From: a virus
IMG/VR virus record: IMGVR_UViG_3300042914_004291
Location: 62,001-126,000 of that record
DNA: 64,000 nt
Reading direction: 5' to 3' (one strand)
The position numbers and the translations under genes are program-made. The notes below the pieces were generated by a model that worked only from the letters and a program-made list of their open reading frames with translations, had not been told where the DNA came from and ran no database searches. Below are positions 25,196 to 52,616 of the stretch, piece after piece (positions within the stretch are counted from its first letter, which is position 1; each line of letters starts with the position of its first letter).

Positions 25196-27697
25196 TCATT
25201 TTTTCATAGTCATTTGGCGGTTTTGGTACATCTTATCGCGCTCAGCCTGCGCTTCAGCATGCAGATACTCATCACGAACCTTAATTACAAGTTTGACAAA
25301 CTCGTCTGTGCCATACTCAGAAAGGTCAAGCACGCGAGGAAAACGTTTTGGATCTTCTTGATGCTTTTGTAGCACTCCCTCAGCCGCCCGGTTCAGTGCA
25401 TGGAGCGCAGGAGTTCCTTTAGGAAGGAGGGGCGCCACGATGCGCTTGAATTGGAAAACATCAAACATTTCGTCCCCCATGCGCGCGCGATGCAGTAATT
25501 TCTTCAATTTGTCCTCCGCGTCGGCGGTGACCGCGTCGGCGGCTTCACGCAGAGATCGACGTTGATTTTGTTCGCGGCCTTTCTTCAGACCTGCTTTATA
25601 AGCAGCAGCAATGGCTTCCATCACCATCTCTTGGTCAGCAGCCTCGGCATCATCAGCAGCAGCCGCATCGTCTGCCATTGCAGCACCGACATCTTCTTTC
25701 ACAGTTGACACCTCTGCTAGAGATTCTTTGAGTGATTGTTTGATCAGCTTGGCAAGGTCTTTCATGTTCATCTTCACGTTGCTTGGTGTTGTTGGTTTCC
25801 TGTTTGTTATAGCCATGGTAGTATTGGAGTTAAATATCTCAGTGATTGGTTTTATTCCTCTTGGTTTGACCATTGCCTGTTTGTTCGCTTGCAACTCCTT
25901 CACTCTCCGCAAACCAGAAGTCCTGATCATCTCAAATATTTCACGGCCAACATTCTTGAGATCATCTGGGAGGTTCGCAGTGAACTTCTGTGTGTCGCCT
26001 ATCGCAATGAATGATCTCATGTCAGTGCCTGAAACGTTTCCGAACCTAGGAACCGATACGATGTCAATGAGTTTCTGTTCTGCTAGCCTAGGGGCATCCA
26101 AAGAAACGCTATCTGGCCTGAACCTTGCTATGTCTTCATCCCCAGCCAACAGATTCACTTGAACGTTCTGTCCGGATCTGTCATAGGCATTCAGCTTCTG
26201 ATATGCCATGGTGACCGGGTTGTCTGTGAACTCAACCATGACGTTTGCTGGGAGTGTTCTGAGAATATATCGATTCCAGATCTCTCTCATGGTAGCGCCT
26301 AGGATTGGCACTTCACCAGACTTCTCTCTGTCACTTTCAGATACCAAAAGAAGCACTTTGTCGCTTTGCATAGAAGCCAGCCTGACAACTCTGTCATGGC
26401 CTCTGTGATATGGCTTGAACGCACCCGGGAAGATTGTGACTGTTGAGTCCGCATTGGGTTTTCGCCGCAAAACAAACCCTTCCTCATCATCATAGCCGCG
26501 GCCACCATACTTCAAAGCTCCAATCAACTGATTGATCGGCGCAAACTGACCGGTGAACTTGTACGACTTGCCATTCCTCCGGAACACAATGCCTTCAATG
26601 GTCGAAGTTATCCTGTCAGCAGCTTGCAACTTGTTTAGTTGATCGCCAAGAGCCGCCAATGCATCAGGTGAAGACTTGATCTTCTCAATAGCAGCTTGAA
26701 GCTCTGTTCGAACTTTTGCGGCAGCACCGCTATGGTCAACCACCAACATACTCTTTGATCCTTCAAGCAACTCACTAGCAAACTTTGTGATCACGTTCTC
26801 AATTGGCTGCGTGATTGTCTTGAAGATCTTCTTCTTGTTCCTGTCAAGTGCAACAATCCGAATGTATTGCTCTTCGTCAGCGGCATACTTCCTGAGTGAG
26901 TTGATCTTGACTGTTCTGTCATCATCACCGGTCAATCTTTTGCCAAGTTCATCTGAGATCGAGCCGTCAATACCATATGGTTTCAGATAGTATCCAAGCT
27001 TGACCTTGATATACTTTCCAACAGTGTCACTGTCATTCATCCCAGCATCTTGCATGATTGCATCAATTGATGCTAGAGCTTCCTTCAGCGGCTCTTTTGA
27101 ACCAAGTTTGACCAAAGGATATACAACCGGCGCACTTAATTTCCATCCTGTCTCAGCCATCTCACCATCGATCTTCTGTGCCAAGCCTAATAGTTTATCA
27201 AACACGGCATCATCATGTGAATCTTCAAGATGGCCTGTTGCTTCGTTAAACTTCCTGGCGCCAAACTTGTGTGGCGATATCACGTTCTGTCCATACACAA
27301 TGATATTTGGGTTCACCACAGCAAGGATCTCAGCAGAGAACCAATACTCACCATGATCACCAAACACACTCACCTTCTCATCAGAACCAAGACCAACCTC
27401 TATGGCCTTTGACAGAACATCATAAGCCTGACTGAAGGCGGACTGAACAGATGGCTTGTCCAACCATTTCCTATCCACCTCTTCTTTTGTCATTCCTCCT
27501 CTGCGCAGATCTCCAAGATTCCTGGCGAACCTGAGAGTTCCTTGACGAAACCCAAAGAAGATGTTCTGGCCATCCAACTTTTCTGTCACCGATTCCAAAC
27601 GTCCGGTGCTAGCATCAGTCAGAATAGACTTCAACTCATCAAACGTCAGACCAATGTCTTCGTATACATGCTGCAAATGTCCTGCTAGTCCACCCAT
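25196..27697 (-). CDS. Fusion of a ligase-family nucleotidyltransferase with an NMNAT-type adenylyltransferase
   Basis: An 833-residue multidomain protein. Residues 1-400: a covalent nucleotidyltransferase of the DNA/RNA ligase family, with the nucleophile motif EKLDGQN (Lys40), a motif III-like WFSAEIL (about 120), and motifs IV-V as STIEGIVFRRNGKSYKF (about 365-381). Residues 428-600: a nucleotidyltransferase of the HxGH class (TIFPGAFKPYHRGHDRV) with the partner motif NVSGTDMRSFI, as in NMN adenylyltransferases. Residues 628-833: a charged, Ala-rich tail beginning MAITNRKP, preceded by intergenic-like DNA, that could be a separately translated protein. Possible roles are RNA repair, NAD synthesis or NAD-linked capping; all inferred. 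It has its own promoter within the structural block. Confidence 0.75.
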   Translation of the reverse strand: MGGLAGHLQHVYEDIGLTFDELKSILTDASTGRLESVTEKLDGQNIFFGFRQGTLRFARNLGDLRRGGMTKEEVDRKWLDKPSVQSAFSQAYDVLSKAIEVGLGSDEKVSVFGDHGEYWFSAEILAVVNPNIIVYGQNVISPHKFGARKFNEATGHLEDSHDDAVFDKLLGLAQKIDGEMAETGWKLSAPVVYPLVKLGSKEPLKEALASIDAIMQDAGMNDSDTVGKYIKVKLGYYLKPYGIDGSISDELGKRLTGDDDRTVKINSLRKYAADEEQYIRIVALDRNKKKIFKTITQPIENVITKFASELLEGSKSMLVVDHSGAAAKVRTELQAAIEKIKSSPDALAALGDQLNKLQAADRITSTIEGIVFRRNGKSYKFTGQFAPINQLIGALKYGGRGYDDEEGFVLRRKPNADSTVTIFPGAFKPYHRGHDRVVRLASMQSDKVLLLVSESDREKSGEVPILGATMREIWNRYILRTLPANVMVEFTDNPVTMAYQKLNAYDRSGQNVQVNLLAGDEDIARFRPDSVSLDAPRLAEQKLIDIVSVPRFGNVSGTDMRSFIAIGDTQKFTANLPDDLKNVGREIFEMIRTSGLRRVKELQANKQAMVKPRGIKPITEIFNSNTTMAITNRKPTTPSNVKMNMKDLAKLIKQSLKESLAEVSTVKEDVGAAMADDAAAADDAEAADQEMVMEAIAAAYKAGLKKGREQNQRRSLREAADAVTADAEDKLKKLLHRARMGDEMFDVFQFKRIVAPLLPKGTPALHALNRAAEGVLQKHQEDPKRFPRVLDLSEYGTDEFVKLVIKVRDEYLHAEAQAERDKMYQNRQMTMKK

Positions 27698-41013: not shown

Positions 41014-41469
41014 ATGAACAACTCTACCCCAACAACTCAGCTCGAAATAGGGCAAGTGATATTTTGTATCTCTGGCGACACTGGGGCTTTGTACCCGGTC
41101 CAAGTGACTGAAGAGGTAGTACACAAATCAATCACTGGCACAAAGAAATCCTACACTGTCAGACTTGATCTGTTTGATGATCAAGGTGTCGTGGAAACCA
41201 AGATAACTTCACTTGAATCATTGAACGATCTGTGGTTTCCAACGTTGGCTGTGGCAAAGGATCACATGCTGAAACAGGCAGCAGCTTTTGTAGATGAAAT
41301 GGCCGATAAAGCCGAGAAGTTGTCCATGATGAGTTTTGGCGAGGAGATGCGTCAGCTAGCCACTAGTGACACAACAGAACAATCTGGTGCCATGCCTTCA
41401 ATAAGAAAGAAACCAACCGTTACAATGCCCGATGGAACAAAGATAGAACTTGATGTACATGAAAACTGA
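41014..41469 (+). CDS. Protein of unknown function upstream of GroEL
   Basis: A 151-residue protein starting MNNSTPTTQLEIGQVIFCIS. The first 60 residues look beta-rich (YPVQVTEEVVHKSITGTKKS) and the rest helical and Met-rich, with a beta hairpin at the end (PTVTMPDGTKIELDVHEN). Its 3' end overlaps the GroEL start by about 17 bp, so the two are translationally linked. A helper role for the chaperonin is possible only by position. Confidence 0.72.
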   Translation: MNNSTPTTQLEIGQVIFCISGDTGALYPVQVTEEVVHKSITGTKKSYTVRLDLFDDQGVVETKITSLESLNDLWFPTLAVAKDHMLKQAAAFVDEMADKAEKLSMMSFGEEMRQLATSDTTEQSGAMPSIRKKPTVTMPDGTKIELDVHEN

Positions 41470-43123
41470 AACTACAAAGAAAACCACCGAAGATCTAGAT
41501 GGAGTTGTGTTTGGTTCCGTTGCAACTGATGGAATGATGGCCGGGGCACGGAAACTCTATCATGCAGTCGGGTCAACGATGGGTCCAAAGGGAAAGAATG
41601 TTATCATTGATAACGGTGTCACTGCACCCCTGATCACAAAAGACGGCGTCACTGTGGCTAGATCGATCAACCTGAAAGACAAGCTCGAAAGTATTGGCGC
41701 AAACCTTATCAAAGAAGTTGCTGCGAAAACAAACGAAGCTGCCGGAGATGGTACAACGACTGCAACTGTCTTGGCTTACAATTTACTACAATCTGGTCTG
41801 AAGATGAAAGCTTCAGGTCGATTGACTTCGGATCTTCAGAAAGGCATTGAATGGGCAACAAAGACAGTGATTGATGACCTGACTCGCGGTGCGATTCAAA
41901 TCGCTGGCGATCGTGAATCAATCATTAACGTTGGCCAAATCTCATCCCGGGATCGATCTGTTGGAGAGCTGATTGCTGACGCTGTAGAGAAGGTAGGTCC
42001 AAATGGTCTGATCACGATTGAACCTGCAAAGAGCACTAAGACTACACTCGAAGTGACGGATGGTTTGGAGCTTTCAAACGGCTATGTCTCGCCTTATTTT
42101 GTCACAAACCAAGAGAAACTCACGGCCGAACTAAACAACTGTTTGATTCTTGTGACTACCCAGAAGATCTCTACGATGAAAGATATCTTGAGGGTTCTGG
42201 AGGCTATTCAGACCGCCAGCAAAAGTCTCTTGATTGTCGCTGATGACATCGAGGGTGAGGCGCTGCATGCTCTGATCGTCAACAAAACAAACAAGATCAT
42301 CAAAGTTTGTGCTATTAAAGCACCGGCTTTTGGTGAACATCGCCACGAGCTCCTCTCTGACCTCGCTTTGGTCACAGGTGCCACGTTGATTGATTCCGGG
42401 TTCAGTAAACCGCTCTCGTCGGTTGGTAGCGCGGAACTTGGAGCTTGCAACAAAGTAACTGTTAGCAAGAGCAACACAATCATTGTTTCCGATGTTAGAA
42501 ACGAGGCCGTAAGAGCCAGGATTGCTACGCTTGAGAGTGCCATTGATCATGCTAGGAAAAACCCTGGATCTCTGAGTGATGATAAGTTTGAACAGCTCAA
42601 AACGCGGCTTGCTAAATTGTCTGGCGGTGTTGCTGTGGTCAAAGTTGGAGGATCTACTGAAGTAGAACTCTTTGAGAAAAAGGATCGTGTAGAAGATGCT
42701 CTGAATGCTACACTTGCTGCTGTTCAAGAAGGAATTCATGCTGGGGGTGGAACTGCACTATGCCTGAACGCGTTTAAATTGTCAAAGAGGCTCCCAGAAC
42801 TCTCTAAAACAAGATCAGATGATTTCTGTTCTGGTGTGAGAGTTGTGATTGAAGCATGCCAAGCTCCATTGAAAACAATTGTGAGTAATGCTGGTAACAG
42901 TCCGGACGTTGTCCTTGCACAGCTAGAAACAAATTTCAACAATGACATAGCTGAGATGGCTGGGTATGGCTTCAACGCAGGAACAGGCGTGTTCTGCAAC
43001 CTGATTGAATCCGGAGTGATTGACCCAGTCAAAGTAACGCGGCTAGCCCTCGAATATGCAAGTTCAGTTGCACAGCTATTGCTCACAACTGAGTGTGTCG
43101 TGTTTGATGCTGGGAATGAATGA
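41453..43123 (+). CDS. groL: GroEL-type chaperonin
   Basis: A 556-residue group I chaperonin, intact by motif. It has STMGPKGKNVIIDNG and TKDGVTVARSI (nucleotide site), AAGDGTTTATVLA (phosphate binding), LLIVADDIEGEALHALIVN (apical domain), VEDALNATLAAVQEGIHAGG (catalytic Asp and GGG), and a C-terminal VTRLALEYASSVAQLLL. It should form a folding chamber, probably for a large phage protein such as the capsid protein. The usual GGM tail is missing, as in several phage chaperonins. Start is the ATG at 41453, one codon after a possible TTG; it overlaps the upstream gene. Confidence 0.95.
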   Translation: MYMKTETTKKTTEDLDGVVFGSVATDGMMAGARKLYHAVGSTMGPKGKNVIIDNGVTAPLITKDGVTVARSINLKDKLESIGANLIKEVAAKTNEAAGDGTTTATVLAYNLLQSGLKMKASGRLTSDLQKGIEWATKTVIDDLTRGAIQIAGDRESIINVGQISSRDRSVGELIADAVEKVGPNGLITIEPAKSTKTTLEVTDGLELSNGYVSPYFVTNQEKLTAELNNCLILVTTQKISTMKDILRVLEAIQTASKSLLIVADDIEGEALHALIVNKTNKIIKVCAIKAPAFGEHRHELLSDLALVTGATLIDSGFSKPLSSVGSAELGACNKVTVSKSNTIIVSDVRNEAVRARIATLESAIDHARKNPGSLSDDKFEQLKTRLAKLSGGVAVVKVGGSTEVELFEKKDRVEDALNATLAAVQEGIHAGGGTALCLNAFKLSKRLPELSKTRSDDFCSGVRVVIEACQAPLKTIVSNAGNSPDVVLAQLETNFNNDIAEMAGYGFNAGTGVFCNLIESGVIDPVKVTRLALEYASSVAQLLLTTECVVFDAGNE

Positions 43124-45024: not shown

Positions 45025-48000
45025 ATGAAGATAGCACACATCTCTGACATTCACTTTCGCGGTATTGCAAGGCACAAAGAATACACAGAGTGTTTTGAAA
45101 ATCTGTTTGAAGATCTTGCAAATGAAGTTAAACCGGATTACATCGTGTGCACGGGAGACTGGTTCCACACCAAGACAGTGGCAATCACACCTGAAGTTAT
45201 TGAAAAAATAACTTGGGTGTTGCGCAAGCTTAGTAGCATTGCTCCGTTGATTGGGATTCTTGGAAACCATGATGGCAACCTTGCAAATGAAAACAGACAA
45301 GACACCATCACTCCAATTGCTAACGCAGTAGACAGCCCACGAGTCAACATCTATAAGCAAACAGGCATGTACACGATGCCCGACAACATGTTGCGTGTCT
45401 GCGTCCTGTCACCATTTGACAAGAGCAACTGGAATGAAACTCTACGAGATTTTATTTCCGGGCAATCGGATGACAAAGTTTCGATATGCTTATACCACGG
45501 TTCTGTTGTTGGTTGTTTGACGGACAGTGACTGGGTTATGACTAAAGGTGCCGAAGAGCACATGGATTACTTCTCAGGAATTGATTTCGGTTTGTTTGGT
45601 GATATTCACCAGCAACAATTTCTCTCTTTCAGAGAAGACAAGTTTGGTAATCAGAAGCCAAACGTTGCATATCCTGGAAGCATGATCCAGCAAAACTATG
45701 GCGAATCGACTGTCAAAGGGTATCTTGTTTGGGATGTCAGATCGAGAAATGACTGGGATGTGGAGTTCCGGCGCGTACACAACAGTAGCAGTTTTGTTAC
45801 GGTACAATGGCATGGCTCTGCGAATGAAACAGTCGCAGCACTCACAAAAGAGTATGGACTGAATCTTGCTGGAAAAAGCATCCGAGTCATGTCCAGGAAC
45901 ACCATATTCGACATTCAGAAGACAGATCTGACGAATCAGTTGCGCACACAATACAAGGCCACTGAGGTAGTGTTCCGGTTTGAGAAAAAGCGCGAGACTG
46001 CAACAAGCCTTTATTCTGATGGCGAGATCGAGCCGGATGATCTTTTCAACACACACAAAGCTGACGGCGGAACCGTGGCGATGATCGATGTCGTCGTCAA
46101 AGCGCTTAAGAAATATGTTGCTGACAACCAGGATGCTGTCCATGTTGTATCTGGTTCTTCAACAGAAAAAGCAATGATTGATCTCGCCACTGCCTATTAC
46201 AACAAAGTTGCTGTCAGTTCAGAGATGAAACGCGACGTTGTATGGTCGTTGAAGAACATGAACTTCAGCAACCTCTACAAGTTTGGAGAAGACAACACAA
46301 TCAACTTTTCCAGAATGCGCGGCATTACCGGAATCTTCGGCGGCAACGCCAGTGGCAAAAGCTCCATCATTGGTGCGATGATGTTCGGCTTGTTCAATAC
46401 CACTGATCGTGGGCCGGTGAAGGCAGCACACATCATCAACAGAAACAAAGCCTCTGGGAGCGCAGAGATCTTGTTCAACGTTGCTGGTACTGATTATGTT
46501 TTGCGGCGAGAAGTAACGAAGTCCAGATCCAGGAAAGGGATTGACCACGAGAAGGCTGCTGGAAAACTCTATCTTGCCAAAGTAGACCTGTCAGGCACCG
46601 AGATTGAGATAAGTTCTGAGAATGCAGAGACTAGATCTGATACCGACAAGGTTGTCCGAAACTTGATCGGTTCCTCCCAGGACTATCTCATGACTGGATT
46701 GGCCTCGCAGGGCGAGATGAATCGATTCATCAAAGAAGGCCCTACAGCAAGAAAACAAATGATATCACGATTTCTTGATCTTAGGATCTATGAAGACATC
46801 TACAAGCTAGCCAACGACGACCTCAACGTGATGAACGCAAAGACCCAGCGCTTCAGGGGTGTTGATTTTGCGGCTAGAATGATTCAGCTATGTTCAGAGC
46901 AAGAGAAGCTTTCAAACGAAGCTGATAAACTCAAAGAAGACATCGAGGCTGTCGAAGAGGAGATCACAGATACTAAGGCTTGGCTCACAGCAAACCACAG
47001 CAGCAAGATCGACAGTCTGATAGAGAAGAAACGAATCTCAGACGAAGCTTTGGCTGATCTGGAATCGAAACGAAACCGCTCAACTGTTGAACTTAGAACA
47101 CATGAGAGCAAGATTGCATCAATCGAGAAACAGCTTGAAGCAGAGATCGTACGGCTGTCCGGAATGGAGCTGGAATCCGATCTTCAAATCAAGAAAAGCA
47201 AACTTGATGGTCTGAACAGAAAGCTTGCAGATCTGGTATCGAGCGAACGAATCGGAAATGCTCTTGCCAAGAAACAAGAAGAGTCTGTGCGCAGGCTGGC
47301 TGTTGTGCCATGCGGTGATCAATATCTAGACGCCTGCAAATACATCGCAGGAGCCAATGAAGATCGTGTGCAGCTAACCAAGACAAATGAAGAGCTTACA
47401 GCGATTGTGCAGGACATGAAACTTCTGCGGCAAGAAATCTATGTGCTTGGCCAAGCTGACATTGATCAGTTGATCAAGTCCAGACAGCTAGCTGGAAGAG
47501 CAGTGGAAGATTTGCAGACCAAGCTAGCCACGGCTCTCTCTGAAAAGAGCTACAAAGAACAACTGAATGAATCGATCAACTCCAGTTTTGCCATGGCACA
47601 AACAGAGAATGAGAAGTTAAAAGAAGAGTACCAGGAGCTTTTGACCAAGATCGAAGAACTGGAATCAAAACAAGAAGAGCTGAAATCGTTGCAGCAAGAG
47701 TTGAATGATCTACGTGTTCAGTTCCAGAACAACATGAAGGCAACAGGAGCTTGCGCAAACAAGCTTGTGACTATAGAAGCAGACAAGCTAGAAGCAGAGA
47801 AACTCACAGCCGAACAGAAAATACTGGATGCTATCTGTGTTGCATTCTCTAAGAACGCCATCCCAGCAATGGTAATTCAGTCTGCACTGCCGTACATCAA
47901 TGCCGAACTGGACAACATCCTCGGCGGCGTCATTCCGTTCAGAGTATATCTCCAGACAGAAGTTGGAGACTCAAACGTACTAGACGTGATGATTGAAGAC

Positions 48001-48306
48001 GAATACTCTTCCAGGATCATTGAACTGGCTTCCGGCTATGAGAAGATGATTGCCAGCTTGGCTCTGCGTGTTGCGTTGATCAACCTTTCACGCCTACCAA
48101 AGCCAGACTTCCTTGTGATCGATGAAGGCTGGGATGTTCTTGATGAGACAAACGTTTCAAGAGCCGTAGAGCTCTTGAACGCACTCAAGACAAAGTTCAA
48201 ACACATTCTCGTGATATCACACGTCAACGCTCTCAAAGAGGCTGCTGATGATTTTATCATGATTCAATCAGGAACAGCAAACGAACCCTCCTTTGTGTCA
48301 TACTGA
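45025..48306 (+). CDS. Fused Mre11-Rad50 (SbcD-SbcC) repair nuclease
   Basis: A 1093-residue single-chain version of what are normally two proteins (T4 gp47 and gp46). Residues 1-340: calcineurin-type nuclease with SDIHFRG, CTGDWFHT, GILGNHDGN, YHGS and FGDIH. From residue 415: Rad50 ATPase with Walker A GGNASGKSS (440-448), long coiled coils and a hook region PCGDQYLDAC. Then come signature LASGYEKMIASLALRVAL and Walker B FLVIDEGWDVLDE near the C-terminus. It processes DNA ends for recombination-dependent replication. The hook has C-x7-C spacing rather than CxxC. Shares an operon with primase. Confidence 0.92.
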   Translation: MKIAHISDIHFRGIARHKEYTECFENLFEDLANEVKPDYIVCTGDWFHTKTVAITPEVIEKITWVLRKLSSIAPLIGILGNHDGNLANENRQDTITPIANAVDSPRVNIYKQTGMYTMPDNMLRVCVLSPFDKSNWNETLRDFISGQSDDKVSICLYHGSVVGCLTDSDWVMTKGAEEHMDYFSGIDFGLFGDIHQQQFLSFREDKFGNQKPNVAYPGSMIQQNYGESTVKGYLVWDVRSRNDWDVEFRRVHNSSSFVTVQWHGSANETVAALTKEYGLNLAGKSIRVMSRNTIFDIQKTDLTNQLRTQYKATEVVFRFEKKRETATSLYSDGEIEPDDLFNTHKADGGTVAMIDVVVKALKKYVADNQDAVHVVSGSSTEKAMIDLATAYYNKVAVSSEMKRDVVWSLKNMNFSNLYKFGEDNTINFSRMRGITGIFGGNASGKSSIIGAMMFGLFNTTDRGPVKAAHIINRNKASGSAEILFNVAGTDYVLRREVTKSRSRKGIDHEKAAGKLYLAKVDLSGTEIEISSENAETRSDTDKVVRNLIGSSQDYLMTGLASQGEMNRFIKEGPTARKQMISRFLDLRIYEDIYKLANDDLNVMNAKTQRFRGVDFAARMIQLCSEQEKLSNEADKLKEDIEAVEEEITDTKAWLTANHSSKIDSLIEKKRISDEALADLESKRNRSTVELRTHESKIASIEKQLEAEIVRLSGMELESDLQIKKSKLDGLNRKLADLVSSERIGNALAKKQEESVRRLAVVPCGDQYLDACKYIAGANEDRVQLTKTNEELTAIVQDMKLLRQEIYVLGQADIDQLIKSRQLAGRAVEDLQTKLATALSEKSYKEQLNESINSSFAMAQTENEKLKEEYQELLTKIEELESKQEELKSLQQELNDLRVQFQNNMKATGACANKLVTIEADKLEAEKLTAEQKILDAICVAFSKNAIPAMVIQSALPYINAELDNILGGVIPFRVYLQTEVGDSNVLDVMIEDEYSSRIIELASGYEKMIASLALRVALINLSRLPKPDFLVIDEGWDVLDETNVSRAVELLNALKTKFKHILVISHVNALKEAADDFIMIQSGTANEPSFVSY

Positions 48307-49039: not shown

Positions 49040-49492
49040 ATGGCCCTCATAGAAAACAAAGAACTCTACGATGTCTTAGCAAATATCGTCGACACCACCT
49101 TCAACTCATCCGAGCGACAGAACAACGTCTTTGTCAAACTCAAAGTGACTGATGACCAAACAATCTCTGTGATGGCACAGAGAATAGTGAACGTCCAGTC
49201 TGCTAAGTTCTACAATGAGATGCGCAAACACTACGAGGATGAGCTCGTTGAAGTCATCAACAAAACGTTAGAGAATTTAAAGACGGCTTATCTCAGAGAA
49301 GTTGAGATCAGATCAAAGCGACTCGACAAATCATCCATCGGCGCCCCTAGACATGAGAAGATCCCGGGCTCGATCAGTTTGAAATTGATCAAAGGGACTT
49401 TGCATGATGATCTAGAGTTTGTTGGAATGTCTGCTCACAGATCAAACAAACAGGCTTTCTATAAGCTTTTTGCAACAGTCGAAGTCAACTGA
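49040..49492 (+). CDS. Protein of unknown function
   Basis: A 150-residue protein starting MALIENKELYDVLANIVDTT. It alternates helices and strands (NVFVKLKVTDDQTISVMAQR, then NEMRKHYEDELVEVINKTLE) and ends in a beta-rich part (GSISLKLIKGTLHDDLEFVG). It converges with the terminase gene, 6 bp apart. No family recognised. Confidence 0.75.
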   Translation: MALIENKELYDVLANIVDTTFNSSERQNNVFVKLKVTDDQTISVMAQRIVNVQSAKFYNEMRKHYEDELVEVINKTLENLKTAYLREVEIRSKRLDKSSIGAPRHEKIPGSISLKLIKGTLHDDLEFVGMSAHRSNKQAFYKLFATVEVN

Positions 49493-49498
49493 CGGGTA

Positions 49499-51169
49499 TC
49501 ACTGTTTGTAGAGCCAACCAAACTCTTTCCGCAAGAGCATCTCATTTTCTAGTGATTGTTTTGATGTGGTGTTTGCCGCAAAACGTGCATATCCAACCTT
49601 CTTGATTCCGCCTGGAGTCGATGATCTTCCCATCCCAGCCAGCATAGCATTTGCCAATGTGCTTGAGTTGCCACTGCTAGCAGCAAACATTGAAGGTAGG
49701 TCGGCATTTGGACTGAACATCTGCAAGCCGATTGCTGCTGCCATGATCAAGTCGTCATGTTTCTTTTTCTGAGCCTGTCCGCGTTTACCGTTCCAGATGA
49801 AAGTCTCCATCTCTACTAGGAACCGTTCGGAAAAAATCCTCACTTTCTTTGTTCGGATGTTCTGTTCCATGAATTGTAAGATTCTTTCCCTGTTGTCTGG
49901 CCCCATCGTCAACCCTGGATAGATCTCAGCTTTCTCCTCTTCCGTCATTGATATCAGTTTTTCTTCGACCTCTTGAGGATAATACAGGTTTGGATACTTG
50001 ATGTTCTTCAAGGCAATGCTTGTGCTCAATCCAACACTGTTGAGCTCGTTGGCGATTTTTGCCATGTTGTATTTTCTCCCCCATTCGTCAAGAATTGCTG
50101 CGAACCTGTCAGGTGGAACTTTGCCCTGGTACTCAACCACGGCCTCAGAAGTTGTTGTATCAAAGATATAGAAGGTTGAGAAGTCCTCGGCATCGCCTCT
50201 CGCAACGTCAGCAGACAAGACGTATTCATGGCCAGGAACCGGAGTTCGCCAGACATGTGCATCTCCTGTTCTTTTATTCCCAATCATCACTGGGATGTTC
50301 AGAGCAGGAGACGTCATGATATTCCGGACATATTGAATAGACTCATCATTGAAGAAGCTCATCGAGCTACCCTCAAAGCTACAGAGCAACTCCTGAGCTA
50401 TACCTCTCTCATCCAGACCAGCGCACTGTTCCTCATACCAATCTTGTCCGCGTTCCGGATGTACGGTCCATGGAAGTTTGATTGCATGAAAACCGTTCTT
50501 GCCTTCGCCTCTGTATTGAATACCGACCTTGTTTGGCTCAGTTTCTTTTGTTTCAGCTCCTTGCCATAGAGTAAAGAAGTGGCCTTTACCTTTGGGTGTA
50601 CTGAAGATGATTGCTTTACCACCAGTAGACAAAGTGCTGAACAAACCAGTCCACAGTTCCGCAAAGTTCTCGATGTGCGCCGCCTCGTCGATCACAAGGA
50701 GTGAAAGAGCCTCAGAACGACCCGCGTCTGCTGCTGTTGGGATTGCCGTGATCTTTGAACCGTTGCTGAATTTGATGTACTTGACAGACTCGCTCTCTGG
50801 GTCTGTGATTTTCAAAGCTTCGAGCATCCACTCCGGGAGCATCTTGAACGCCACCCGGATCTTCTGGATCATGTTCTTTCCAACCTCCAGTTTGGTCGCC
50901 ATGATGCAGATGTTCACGTCCCTTTGGAATACTGCCATCCAAAGACAATAAGCCGAAGTGATCGTTGACAGCCCTAGCTGCCTGGACTTCAAGACGATGT
51001 TCTTCTTGTATTTGACAAAGCTCTCAATACATTCTTCCTGGAAAGGATAGAGGTTGAGTGGTAGTCTACCCTTGGTTGGGTGCTGGATGAAACAGTAACG
51101 TTTGATGAAATAGATTGGGTCTTTGCCACACTTGAGAATTTCTTCTACGTGTTGCTTGCGGGTCATCAT
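49499..51169 (-). CDS. Terminase large subunit (gp17-like packaging motor)
   Basis: A 556-residue motor-nuclease that pumps DNA into the prohead through the portal and cuts concatemers. The ATPase domain has a deviant Walker A KSRQLGLSTI (Lys upstream of the usual place, common in phage terminases), Walker B LLVIDEAAHI and coupling motif IFSTPKGKGHFF. The RNase H-like nuclease domain has SADVARGDAEDFSTF (first Asp) and KKKHDDLIMAAAIG (last acidic pair). Length is close to T4 gp17 (610). It lies far from the portal and capsid genes and next to its own degraded paralog. Confidence 0.92.
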   Translation of the reverse strand: MMTRKQHVEEILKCGKDPIYFIKRYCFIQHPTKGRLPLNLYPFQEECIESFVKYKKNIVLKSRQLGLSTITSAYCLWMAVFQRDVNICIMATKLEVGKNMIQKIRVAFKMLPEWMLEALKITDPESESVKYIKFSNGSKITAIPTAADAGRSEALSLLVIDEAAHIENFAELWTGLFSTLSTGGKAIIFSTPKGKGHFFTLWQGAETKETEPNKVGIQYRGEGKNGFHAIKLPWTVHPERGQDWYEEQCAGLDERGIAQELLCSFEGSSMSFFNDESIQYVRNIMTSPALNIPVMIGNKRTGDAHVWRTPVPGHEYVLSADVARGDAEDFSTFYIFDTTTSEAVVEYQGKVPPDRFAAILDEWGRKYNMAKIANELNSVGLSTSIALKNIKYPNLYYPQEVEEKLISMTEEEKAEIYPGLTMGPDNRERILQFMEQNIRTKKVRIFSERFLVEMETFIWNGKRGQAQKKKHDDLIMAAAIGLQMFSPNADLPSMFAASSGNSSTLANAMLAGMGRSSTPGGIKKVGYARFAANTTSKQSLENEMLLRKEFGWLYKQ

Positions 51170-51190: not shown

Positions 51191-51868
51191 CTATGGCTTA
51201 GTGAAATCGCACAAGAACTCTCTATCGAACTCTTCAGGAGTCATCAATGCTTGCATATTTTCGAACCAGTCTTGGCCATAGCGTTCCACCATTCCTGTTT
51301 TGAAGCAGTCATTCAACAGATAAGGCAATGAATTTTGTTTCCAATCATGAAAGAATTCCTTCATGGCAAAAGTCCCTGGCAAGCTTGCGACTATGGTTTT
51401 GCTGTTTGCCATGTAAGCCATCGGCCGCATACATCTGTATGTGTCAATGATTCTTTCTTGCCACTCTATGGCGTCGGGAGATATGATCAGTAAATCTGCT
51501 GCATAACCCTTACATGGAGGAACCAGCCTTACAATGCTAGAGTTGTTTTCCCGCAAAACAATCCCGCCACCTCTCAGAAACGTGTCTGCTTTCAGGTCTG
51601 CGAATATCTTTGAGACTTGTAGAAGAATTTTAGCATTATCAGTAACAACGCAACGCCTATCGTGTCTTAGCATTTCCCAAGCACAGATACCTGCCATGAT
51701 GCTTGTGGCACCAATCTGTCTTGAGAGTCCCCAGAACATGTTTTTTTCTGTTTGGTACTGCTCAACCCATTCTATTTGGTGAGGATAAAGACCGGTTTTA
51801 GATGGACCACAGGGATTCTGGAATTGAAGATTTTTCTGCAAAAACTCTAAAAGGTCTTCCTTTATCAT
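51191..51868 (-). CDS. Truncated, ATPase-dead terminase paralog
   Basis: A 225-residue protein from the ATG at 51868 (MIKEDLLEFLQKNLQ); the frame extends upstream but only through the divergent promoter region. It aligns with the ATPase half of the adjacent terminase: YPHQIEWVEQYQTEKNMFWG, SRQIGATSIMAG, then QDWFENMQALMTPEEFDREF and LCDF (against QDWYEEQCAGLDERGIAQEL, LCSF). The Walker A Lys is lost (GLSRQIGATS) and the Walker B Asp-Glu is replaced (LLIISPDAIEW). The nuclease domain is absent. It may be a regulatory subunit of the motor or an anti-rival decoy; both inferred. Stop is 22 bp before the terminase start. Confidence 0.72.
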   Translation of the reverse strand: MIKEDLLEFLQKNLQFQNPCGPSKTGLYPHQIEWVEQYQTEKNMFWGLSRQIGATSIMAGICAWEMLRHDRRCVVTDNAKILLQVSKIFADLKADTFLRGGGIVLRENNSSIVRLVPPCKGYAADLLIISPDAIEWQERIIDTYRCMRPMAYMANSKTIVASLPGTFAMKEFFHDWKQNSLPYLLNDCFKTGMVERYGQDWFENMQALMTPEEFDREFLCDFTKP

Positions 51869-51914: not shown

Positions 51915-52616
51915 ATGACAGAGCTATTGAAGACATCAAAGAAACATCCACCGCTTGGAAACACCAATCCGGAAAAGCAGTTGGGTTTGACCAGAGAGCA
52001 GTTTGTTGAGGATTGTATCAAGCTAGACAGATGGCACAAACGAGCACACAAGTTTTCTTTTCAACCGTACCAGCCGATCGGGGAGGACTACATGTGTTCT
52101 GCTTTGACGATTGCACAACAGTTTCACAACACGCTAAACAAACTCAGAGAGTGTTGGACTGACAAGATAGCAGATCAATTGTTCTGGGAACTTCAAGTGA
52201 AAAAGATCAGAGATCACGCCGTCAGAGAATTTGATTTAACTGACGTGATGGTCAGTACGACCTATGAAGATGACATCTATCTCTTGAATGACAAGATCGT
52301 GATGATGCGTCCAAGCCACAAGGCCAGCAGTCCGGAAACTTGGGCTTATGTTGTGATGCATGAGATTGGCCATCACGTGATCAACAGAAACCGATCAGCT
52401 TTCAAATATTCAATAGGGAATGCCAACCAGCGTGCTTTCTTCAGTAATCCTGCCGCACAAAAAACAAAGACATACCAAGTGAGTTTGTTTGAAGTTGAAG
52501 CTGTCGCGTGGCACGAAGGTTATAAACTAGCCAAGGAGATTGGTGTTCATCTGGTGGATAGTAACTTCGACAAAGTTAAGACTAATTGCCTTCTGAGTTA
52601 TGCAGTGCTAGAGTAA
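51915..52616 (+). CDS. HExxH zinc metallopeptidase
   Basis: A 233-residue protein with a textbook zinc-peptidase motif HEIGHHVINRN (His149, Glu150, His153). A downstream glutamate in LFEVEAVAWHEGYKLAKEIG (193-195) can serve as third ligand, as in gluzincins and IrrE/ImmA-type peptidases. No signal peptide or membrane segment, so it should act in the cytoplasm. The target is unknown; host regulators or phage precursor proteins are candidates. It is divergent from the terminase pair and precedes the sigma factor by 36 bp. Confidence 0.75.
   Translation: MTELLKTSKKHPPLGNTNPEKQLGLTREQFVEDCIKLDRWHKRAHKFSFQPYQPIGEDYMCSALTIAQQFHNTLNKLRECWTDKIADQLFWELQVKKIRDHAVREFDLTDVMVSTTYEDDIYLLNDKIVMMRPSHKASSPETWAYVVMHEIGHHVINRNRSAFKYSIGNANQRAFFSNPAAQKTKTYQVSLFEVEAVAWHEGYKLAKEIGVHLVDSNFDKVKTNCLLSYAVLE

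What the first reader, a model, noticed from the sequence alone, without database searches (positions are those of the whole stretch)
51191..51868. Terminase ATPase-domain paralog with both Walker motifs destroyed
It lies 22 bp upstream of the full terminase gene on the same strand and keeps the flanking sequence (QDWFENMQ...FLCDF against QDWYEEQC...LLCSF). It lacks the Walker A Lys, the Walker B Asp-Glu and the whole nuclease domain. A dead motor subunit could regulate packaging, adapt the motor to a large head, or poison competing phages.
Basis: partly seen in the sequence, partly recalled or inferred. Interest (0 to 1): 0.76.

Follow-up and report, generated by a model that had tools for sequence, protein, structure and literature searches.

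The report
Dead packaging-motor copy beside terL
Next to the gene for its DNA-packaging motor this phage carries a shortened copy of the motor's engine that appears unable to burn ATP or cut DNA, and similar dead copies sit beside the motor gene in several well-studied giant phages, so it is probably a regulatory part of the packaging machine that nobody has tested.

Summary
Window 51191-51868 (-) encodes a complete 225-aa protein collinear with the TerL ATPase domain (about 24% identity to the TerL encoded 21 bp downstream). It stops where the nuclease would begin. It lacks the Walker A lysine at both positions TerLs use, and the Walker B catalytic glutamate. Whether the Walker B Asp is lost depends on the alignment. 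TerL itself has a variant Walker A (KSRQLGLST).

It is not a split or broken terL: TerL is full length, and the paralog is far too diverged yet open. No close relative was found in IMG/VR, GenBank phages or GTDB genomes, and the nearest TerL relatives (58-60%) lack it.

Profile searches showed the architecture recurs. Nuclease-less, glutamate-less TerL-like proteins occur directly upstream of terL in Erwinia phage Hallingskeid, 121Q and RaK2 (121Q gene 3 has matches in 47 jumbo-phage records), and elsewhere in LR756500, LR756504, Phosso and Atu_ph07. A motif-intact version lies between terS and terL in phiM12-type phages (dN/dS 0.2). I found no description of this as a class.

Best reading: a conserved pseudo-ATPase partner of the packaging motor, often in the TerS slot. 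Identity is well supported; mechanism is inferred (about 0.5). Common origin is unresolved.

The parts
51191..51868 (-). pseudo-TerL: 225-aa nuclease-less TerL ATPase-domain paralog
51701..51730 (-). degenerate Walker A, GLSRQIGATS (residues 47-56); Leu48 where TerL has Lys61
51470..51493 (-). degenerate Walker B, LLIISPDA (residues 126-133); catalytic Glu absent
   Evidence: strand 126-129 in the model precedes S130
51203..51274 (-). conserved end of the ATPase region, QDWFENMQALMTPEEFDREFLCDF (199-222), directly before the stop
49499..51169 (-). full-length TerL, 556 aa (Walker A K61SRQLGLST, Walker B D161E162, C-terminal nuclease)
   Evidence: nuclease profile hit
49040..49492 (+). neighbour gene lying directly upstream of terL in relatives; weak fold likeness to neck/tail-terminator proteins, no terminase small subunit among the best fold matches
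51915..52616 (+). divergent neighbour, zinc-metalloprotease-like (HEIGHH); 46 bp from the paralog start

Best explanation
The gene encodes a pseudo-ATPase derived from a T4-type large terminase: the whole ATPase domain, without the nuclease domain, the P-loop lysine and the catalytic glutamate (shown by sequence). It is kept as a working gene, one of a recurrent class of such genes in large T4-type phages (shown for the class, inferred for this copy). It is made beside TerL and uses TerL's own contact surfaces to bind the motor, the portal or DNA as a partner that cannot hydrolyse ATP (inferred). It would thereby control assembly, loading or pacing of the motor, for example as a transient placeholder or clamp in the TerL ring, or as the regulatory subunit usually supplied by TerS, in whose slot it lies (inferred).
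For: Collinear homology over the whole ATPase domain. Catalytic residues gone while the Q residue, R-Q-x-G loop and the W/E/C/F residues at the domain end stay. Same slot directly upstream of terL, same strand, in Hallingskeid (XPP58691, Walker B DN), 121Q gene 3 (DM) and RaK2 (EN), with matches to 121Q gene 3 in 47 jumbo-phage records. A dead copy 91 bp downstream of terL in LR756500. A motif-intact short paralog between terS and terL in phiM12/phiN3, dN/dS 0.205. For 121Q gene 3, relatives at 80% DNA identity keep 70.6% protein identity; neutral simulations give a mean of 59-62% and almost always a stop. Published precedent that T4 motors tolerate ATPase-dead subunits but engage DNA less and pause more (PMC8589836).
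Against: No experiment. No orthologue of the window's own copy, so selection on it cannot be measured. Several members of the class (Phosso, Atu_ph07, LR756508, LR756501, LR756504) are not next to terL. The tree neither joins nor firmly separates the paralogs. A dead subunit that simply joined the ring would be expected to slow the motor.
Confidence: 0.5

Rival explanations
1. It is the phage's substitute for the small terminase: a TerL-derived protein that recognises the genome and loads it onto TerL.
For: It lies where TerS usually lies; no TerS was found among the window proteins tested. The gene now flanking terL looks like a neck/tail-terminator protein, not TerS (weak). In LR756508 the paralog carries an N-terminal ribbon-helix-helix-like segment. 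The Phosso copy is annotated 'terminase small subunit'.
Against: No DNA-binding or oligomerisation domain beyond the ATPase region in the window protein. phiM12-type phages have both TerS and the short paralog. Not every ORF of the genome was searched for TerS.
Confidence: 0.2
2. It is a decoy or inhibitor of bacterial Avs sensors, which recognise the large terminase.
For: Avs1-Avs4 sense TerL or portal (stated in PMC12931631). Avs3-bound TerL is among the best fold matches. Motif loss would be tolerated in a decoy.
Against: Adjacency to terL is not needed for a decoy. Neighbouring genes were not tested for defence functions. Divergence from the cognate TerL is large.
Confidence: 0.12
3. It poisons packaging of co-infecting phages by entering their motors.
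For: A nuclease-less dead subunit could act as a dominant negative (inference).
Against: It would meet its own TerL first; identity to other TerLs is no higher than to its own.
Confidence: 0.05
4. It is a decaying duplicate or fragment of terL without function.
For: No close relatives found; codon usage is less gene-like than that of the large genes.
Against: An intact frame at ~24% identity; catalytic residues lost while other conserved residues stay; the same architecture kept in many phages with signs of purifying selection.
Confidence: 0.08

Closest known systems
Gene 3 of Escherichia phage 121Q and its homologues in RaK2-like and other jumbo phages (mostly hypothetical proteins, directly upstream of terL)
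   Same: Same strand, directly upstream of terL, ~230-250 aa, TerL-ATPase-like, no Walker A Lys, no catalytic Glu, no nuclease
   Different: About 15% identity to the window protein for the Hallingskeid member; orthology unresolved; homology to TerL weaker than for the window protein
gp17.2 of Sinorhizobium phage phiM12 / gp94 of phiN3
   Same: Short nuclease-less TerL paralog directly upstream of terL
   Different: Walker A Lys and Walker B Asp-Glu intact; ends before the last part of the ATPase region; lies after a real terS; 34% identical to its TerL
270-aa ORF of uncultured phage LR756500; XYS97501 of Phosso; AUZ95386 of Atu_ph07
   Same: Dead (Walker B DN, DN, ND), nuclease-less, end at the same point
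   Different: Downstream of terL (LR756500) or far from it
T4 gp17 large terminase
   Same: Fold and collinear motifs of the ATPase domain
   Different: Active ATPase plus nuclease; the window protein has neither set of residues

Membership tests
Large terminase (TerL, T4 gp17 type) | collinear ATPase domain of the TerL family | tested here: met
   phrog_2 E=2e-7; hhalign E=1.2e-6
Large terminase (TerL, T4 gp17 type) | Walker A lysine | tested here: not met
   L48 and A54 at the two possible positions
Large terminase (TerL, T4 gp17 type) | Walker B catalytic Glu | tested here: not met
   Pro or Ala, depending on alignment
Large terminase (TerL, T4 gp17 type) | C-terminal nuclease domain | tested here: not met
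   protein ends at the linker; no nuclease-profile hit
Class of terL-adjacent pseudo-TerL genes (121Q gene 3, Hallingskeid XPP58691, RaK2) | directly upstream of terL, same strand, nuclease-less, no Walker A Lys or catalytic Glu | tested here: met
Class of terL-adjacent pseudo-TerL genes (121Q gene 3, Hallingskeid XPP58691, RaK2) | common descent with those genes | tested here: inconclusive
   one clade of the first eight paralogs not rejected, p-AU 0.098, nor supported; the 121Q/RaK2/Hallingskeid genes were not in the tree
Small terminase (TerS) | DNA-binding (HTH) N-domain and oligomerisation domain | tested here: not met
   the 225 aa are accounted for by the TerL ATPase domain
Small terminase (TerS) | genome recognition and stimulation of TerL | not testable with these tools
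   needs biochemistry
Split or frameshifted terL | complementary pieces of one TerL | tested here: not met
   TerL is complete and the paralog duplicates its N-domain at ~24% identity

The most novel reading that the evidence does not exclude
Large T4-type phages have repeatedly kept a catalytically dead copy of the TerL ATPase domain beside terL as a dedicated, non-hydrolysing subunit of the packaging motor, so that their working motor is a hetero-oligomer or is loaded by a pseudo-terminase instead of TerS.
Probability: 0.35. Interest if true: 0.85.

Novelty: new variant of a known kind. Interest (0 to 1): 0.7.

Why it matters
Packaging motors are treated as rings of identical TerL subunits (five in T4, PMC8589836). 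A conserved dead paralog beside terL in isolated phages (121Q/PBECO4 group, RaK2, Hallingskeid) makes it directly testable whether some motors use a built-in inactive partner, as some other ring ATPases do. It also gives a lead to a mostly hypothetical gene present in dozens of jumbo phage genomes and may bear on missing TerS genes.

Tried and rejected
Single-protein scans with the window protein found no relative in IMG/VR, GTDB genomes or GenBank phages beyond TerLs. The 49 records searched whole with the profile, 48 of them IMG/VR contigs with related TerLs, gave no second copy except in LR756508. Scans for the Phosso and Hallingskeid copies found no other copy beyond TerLs; the Atu_ph07 copy only itself. 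Tree placement is unusable for origin because of long branches; the paralog with its own TerL is not rejected (p 0.25), nor all eight paralogs as one clade (p 0.098). XacN1 ORF261 is borderline (E=0.0012) and not counted; XacN1 ORF256, directly upstream of its terL, is not TerL-like. No paralog was detected in Munch, PAU, phage G, immuto, Mel-JY01, Lak-A1, LR756502, LR756511, LR745206 or T4; 121Q and RaK2 also scored negative with the first profile and were found only after the Hallingskeid sequence was added, so negatives are not absences. The idea that gene 49040 is TerS was not supported. Literature searches for TerL paralogs gave nothing on this class; only open-licence papers were searchable.

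Full report
WHAT WAS CHECKED. The ORF at 51191-51868 (-) translates to 225 aa without interruption; TerL (556 aa) follows after 21 bp on the same strand. The frame stays open upstream to a TTG at 52051, but that extension overlaps the divergent metalloprotease gene (51915) and is not gene-like in codon use, so ATG 51868 is the likely start.

HOMOLOGY. Pfam gives nothing for the paralog, but phrog_2 (TerL) matches residues 26-223 at 2e-7. A 12-TerL profile aligns residues 5-223 in order, and a 32-TerL profile gives 40.9 bits over 4-223. Against the 12-TerL N-domain profile no shuffle of 2000 and no other window ORF comes close. An AlphaFold model on the TerL alignment is of middling confidence (pLDDT 61); its best PDB matches are T4 gp17 structures (E 9e-6). 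That alignment contained TerLs, so the fold match is supporting, not independent.

MOTIFS. Across the nearest related TerLs the P-loop reads LK(S/A/P)RQxG with the lysine at its start. The paralog reads GLSRQIGATS: the R-Q-x-G frame is kept, both possible lysines are gone. Walker B LLVIDEAA becomes LLIISPDA: the Glu is gone whichever way it is aligned, the Asp ambiguous. Of 64 columns at least 75% identical in 32 TerLs the paralog keeps 23, including Q44, R63, Q64, G66, S190, P192, W244, E260, C263 and F265 (TerL numbering), and loses E162, R151 and T191. The protein ends at the linker before the nuclease part, and nothing in the genome matches the nuclease profile except TerL.

CONTEXT. In the closest TerL relatives (L003, L004, L023; 58-60%) the order is 48721-homologue, 49040-homologue, terL, a RecA-like gene, further genes, metalloprotease, sigma factor, with no paralog (L004 is shorter). 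In the window terL and the paralog lie as a pair on the opposite strand between the same flanking genes. Un-inverting the pair would put the paralog between the 49040 gene and terL. That is inference from gene order; L003's genes between terL and the metalloprotease are not found in the window genome.

RECURRENCE. A profile of TerL ATPase domains plus the window protein (A2) was run against whole records. Further nuclease-less TerL-like ORFs appeared. LR756508 (484 kb): 288 aa, motifs intact, N-terminal ribbon-helix-helix-like segment. LR756500 (462 kb): 270 aa, 91 bp downstream of terL, Walker B DN. LR756501 (735 kb): 390 aa, motifs intact. LR756504 (636 kb): 221 aa at a contig end, dead. Phosso: 281 aa, DN. 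Atu_ph07: 244 aa, ND. phiN3: 194 aa, motifs intact, between terS and terL. Hallingskeid: 252 aa directly upstream of terL, Walker B DN. Adding that sequence exposed 121Q gene 3 (E=6e-5, Walker B DM) and its RaK2 homologue (EN); a three-sequence profile of these matches the TerL profile at E=1.2e-7 over 181 columns. 121Q gene 3 has relatives in 47 records of Escherichia, Salmonella and Klebsiella jumbo phages, mostly annotated hypothetical, in some 'DNA packaging protein'. The records were partly chosen because they showed hits, so no prevalence is claimed.

SELECTION. phiN3/phiM12: dN/dS 0.205 for the short paralog against 0.044 for TerL; this copy has intact motifs. For dead copies: 121Q against fEgEco12-type phages, 80.1% DNA and 70.6% protein identity, against a neutral mean of 59-62% (maximum of 2000 runs 72-74%) with a stop in 98-99.9% of runs. 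This is a rough test that the dead gene is constrained. For the window copy no orthologue exists to test.

ORIGIN. The tree cannot say whether these are one family or repeated duplications. Phosso and Atu_ph07 copies group (98/93) but are two long branches.

MECHANISM. Shown: a TerL-derived ATPase domain without catalytic residues or nuclease; recurrence; adjacency to terL in several lineages; signs of constraint in two lineages. Inferred: that it binds TerL, portal or DNA and regulates packaging. T4 motors doped with ATPase-dead gp17 still package but engage DNA less often and pause more (PMC8589836), so a dead subunit is physically compatible with a motor and would change its behaviour. The TerS-substitute and Avs-decoy readings remain open.

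NOVELTY. The phiM12 record already names gp17.2 as a second large-subunit gene, and one paper lists three terminases in jumbo phage AP-J-162 without interpretation in the passage read (PMC11242549). I found no description of catalytically dead, nuclease-less TerL paralogs as a class. The literature search was limited to open-licence papers.

Noticed in passing
SCTP-2 (MF360958) 429488-429688, 256773-257033, 216734-216997 (L176, L179-L181): TerL ATPase-domain pieces covering profile positions 3-65, 66-153 and 175-251 lie at three distant places of the genome, as if the protein were assembled from trans-spliced parts.
   Followed up: partly
L023:4866-7829; RaK2 L184; LR756500 L163; LR756501; Atu_ph07: Insertions or splits in TerL recur: an intein-like insert in L023 after AQELLC, and in RaK2 right after RQMGK within the P-loop; LR756500, LR756501 and Atu_ph07 TerLs are broken near the same P-loop site.
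   Followed up: partly
window 45025-48306 (+): One 1093-aa ORF holds an SbcD-like nuclease and an SbcC-like ATPase that are two separate ORFs in relative L005: apparently a fusion.
   Followed up: no
L114:1363-2229 (LR756508): Motif-intact TerL ATPase domain with an N-terminal ribbon-helix-helix-like segment and no nuclease.
   Followed up: partly
L158:1309-2154 (Phosso XYS97501): Annotated 'terminase small subunit' but is a dead TerL ATPase-domain paralog (phrog_5989, Terminase_6N).
   Followed up: yes
window 41450-43123 (+) and 25196-27697 (-): Phage-encoded GroEL, and an 833-aa protein with a cytidyltransferase-like domain among the structural genes.
   Followed up: no
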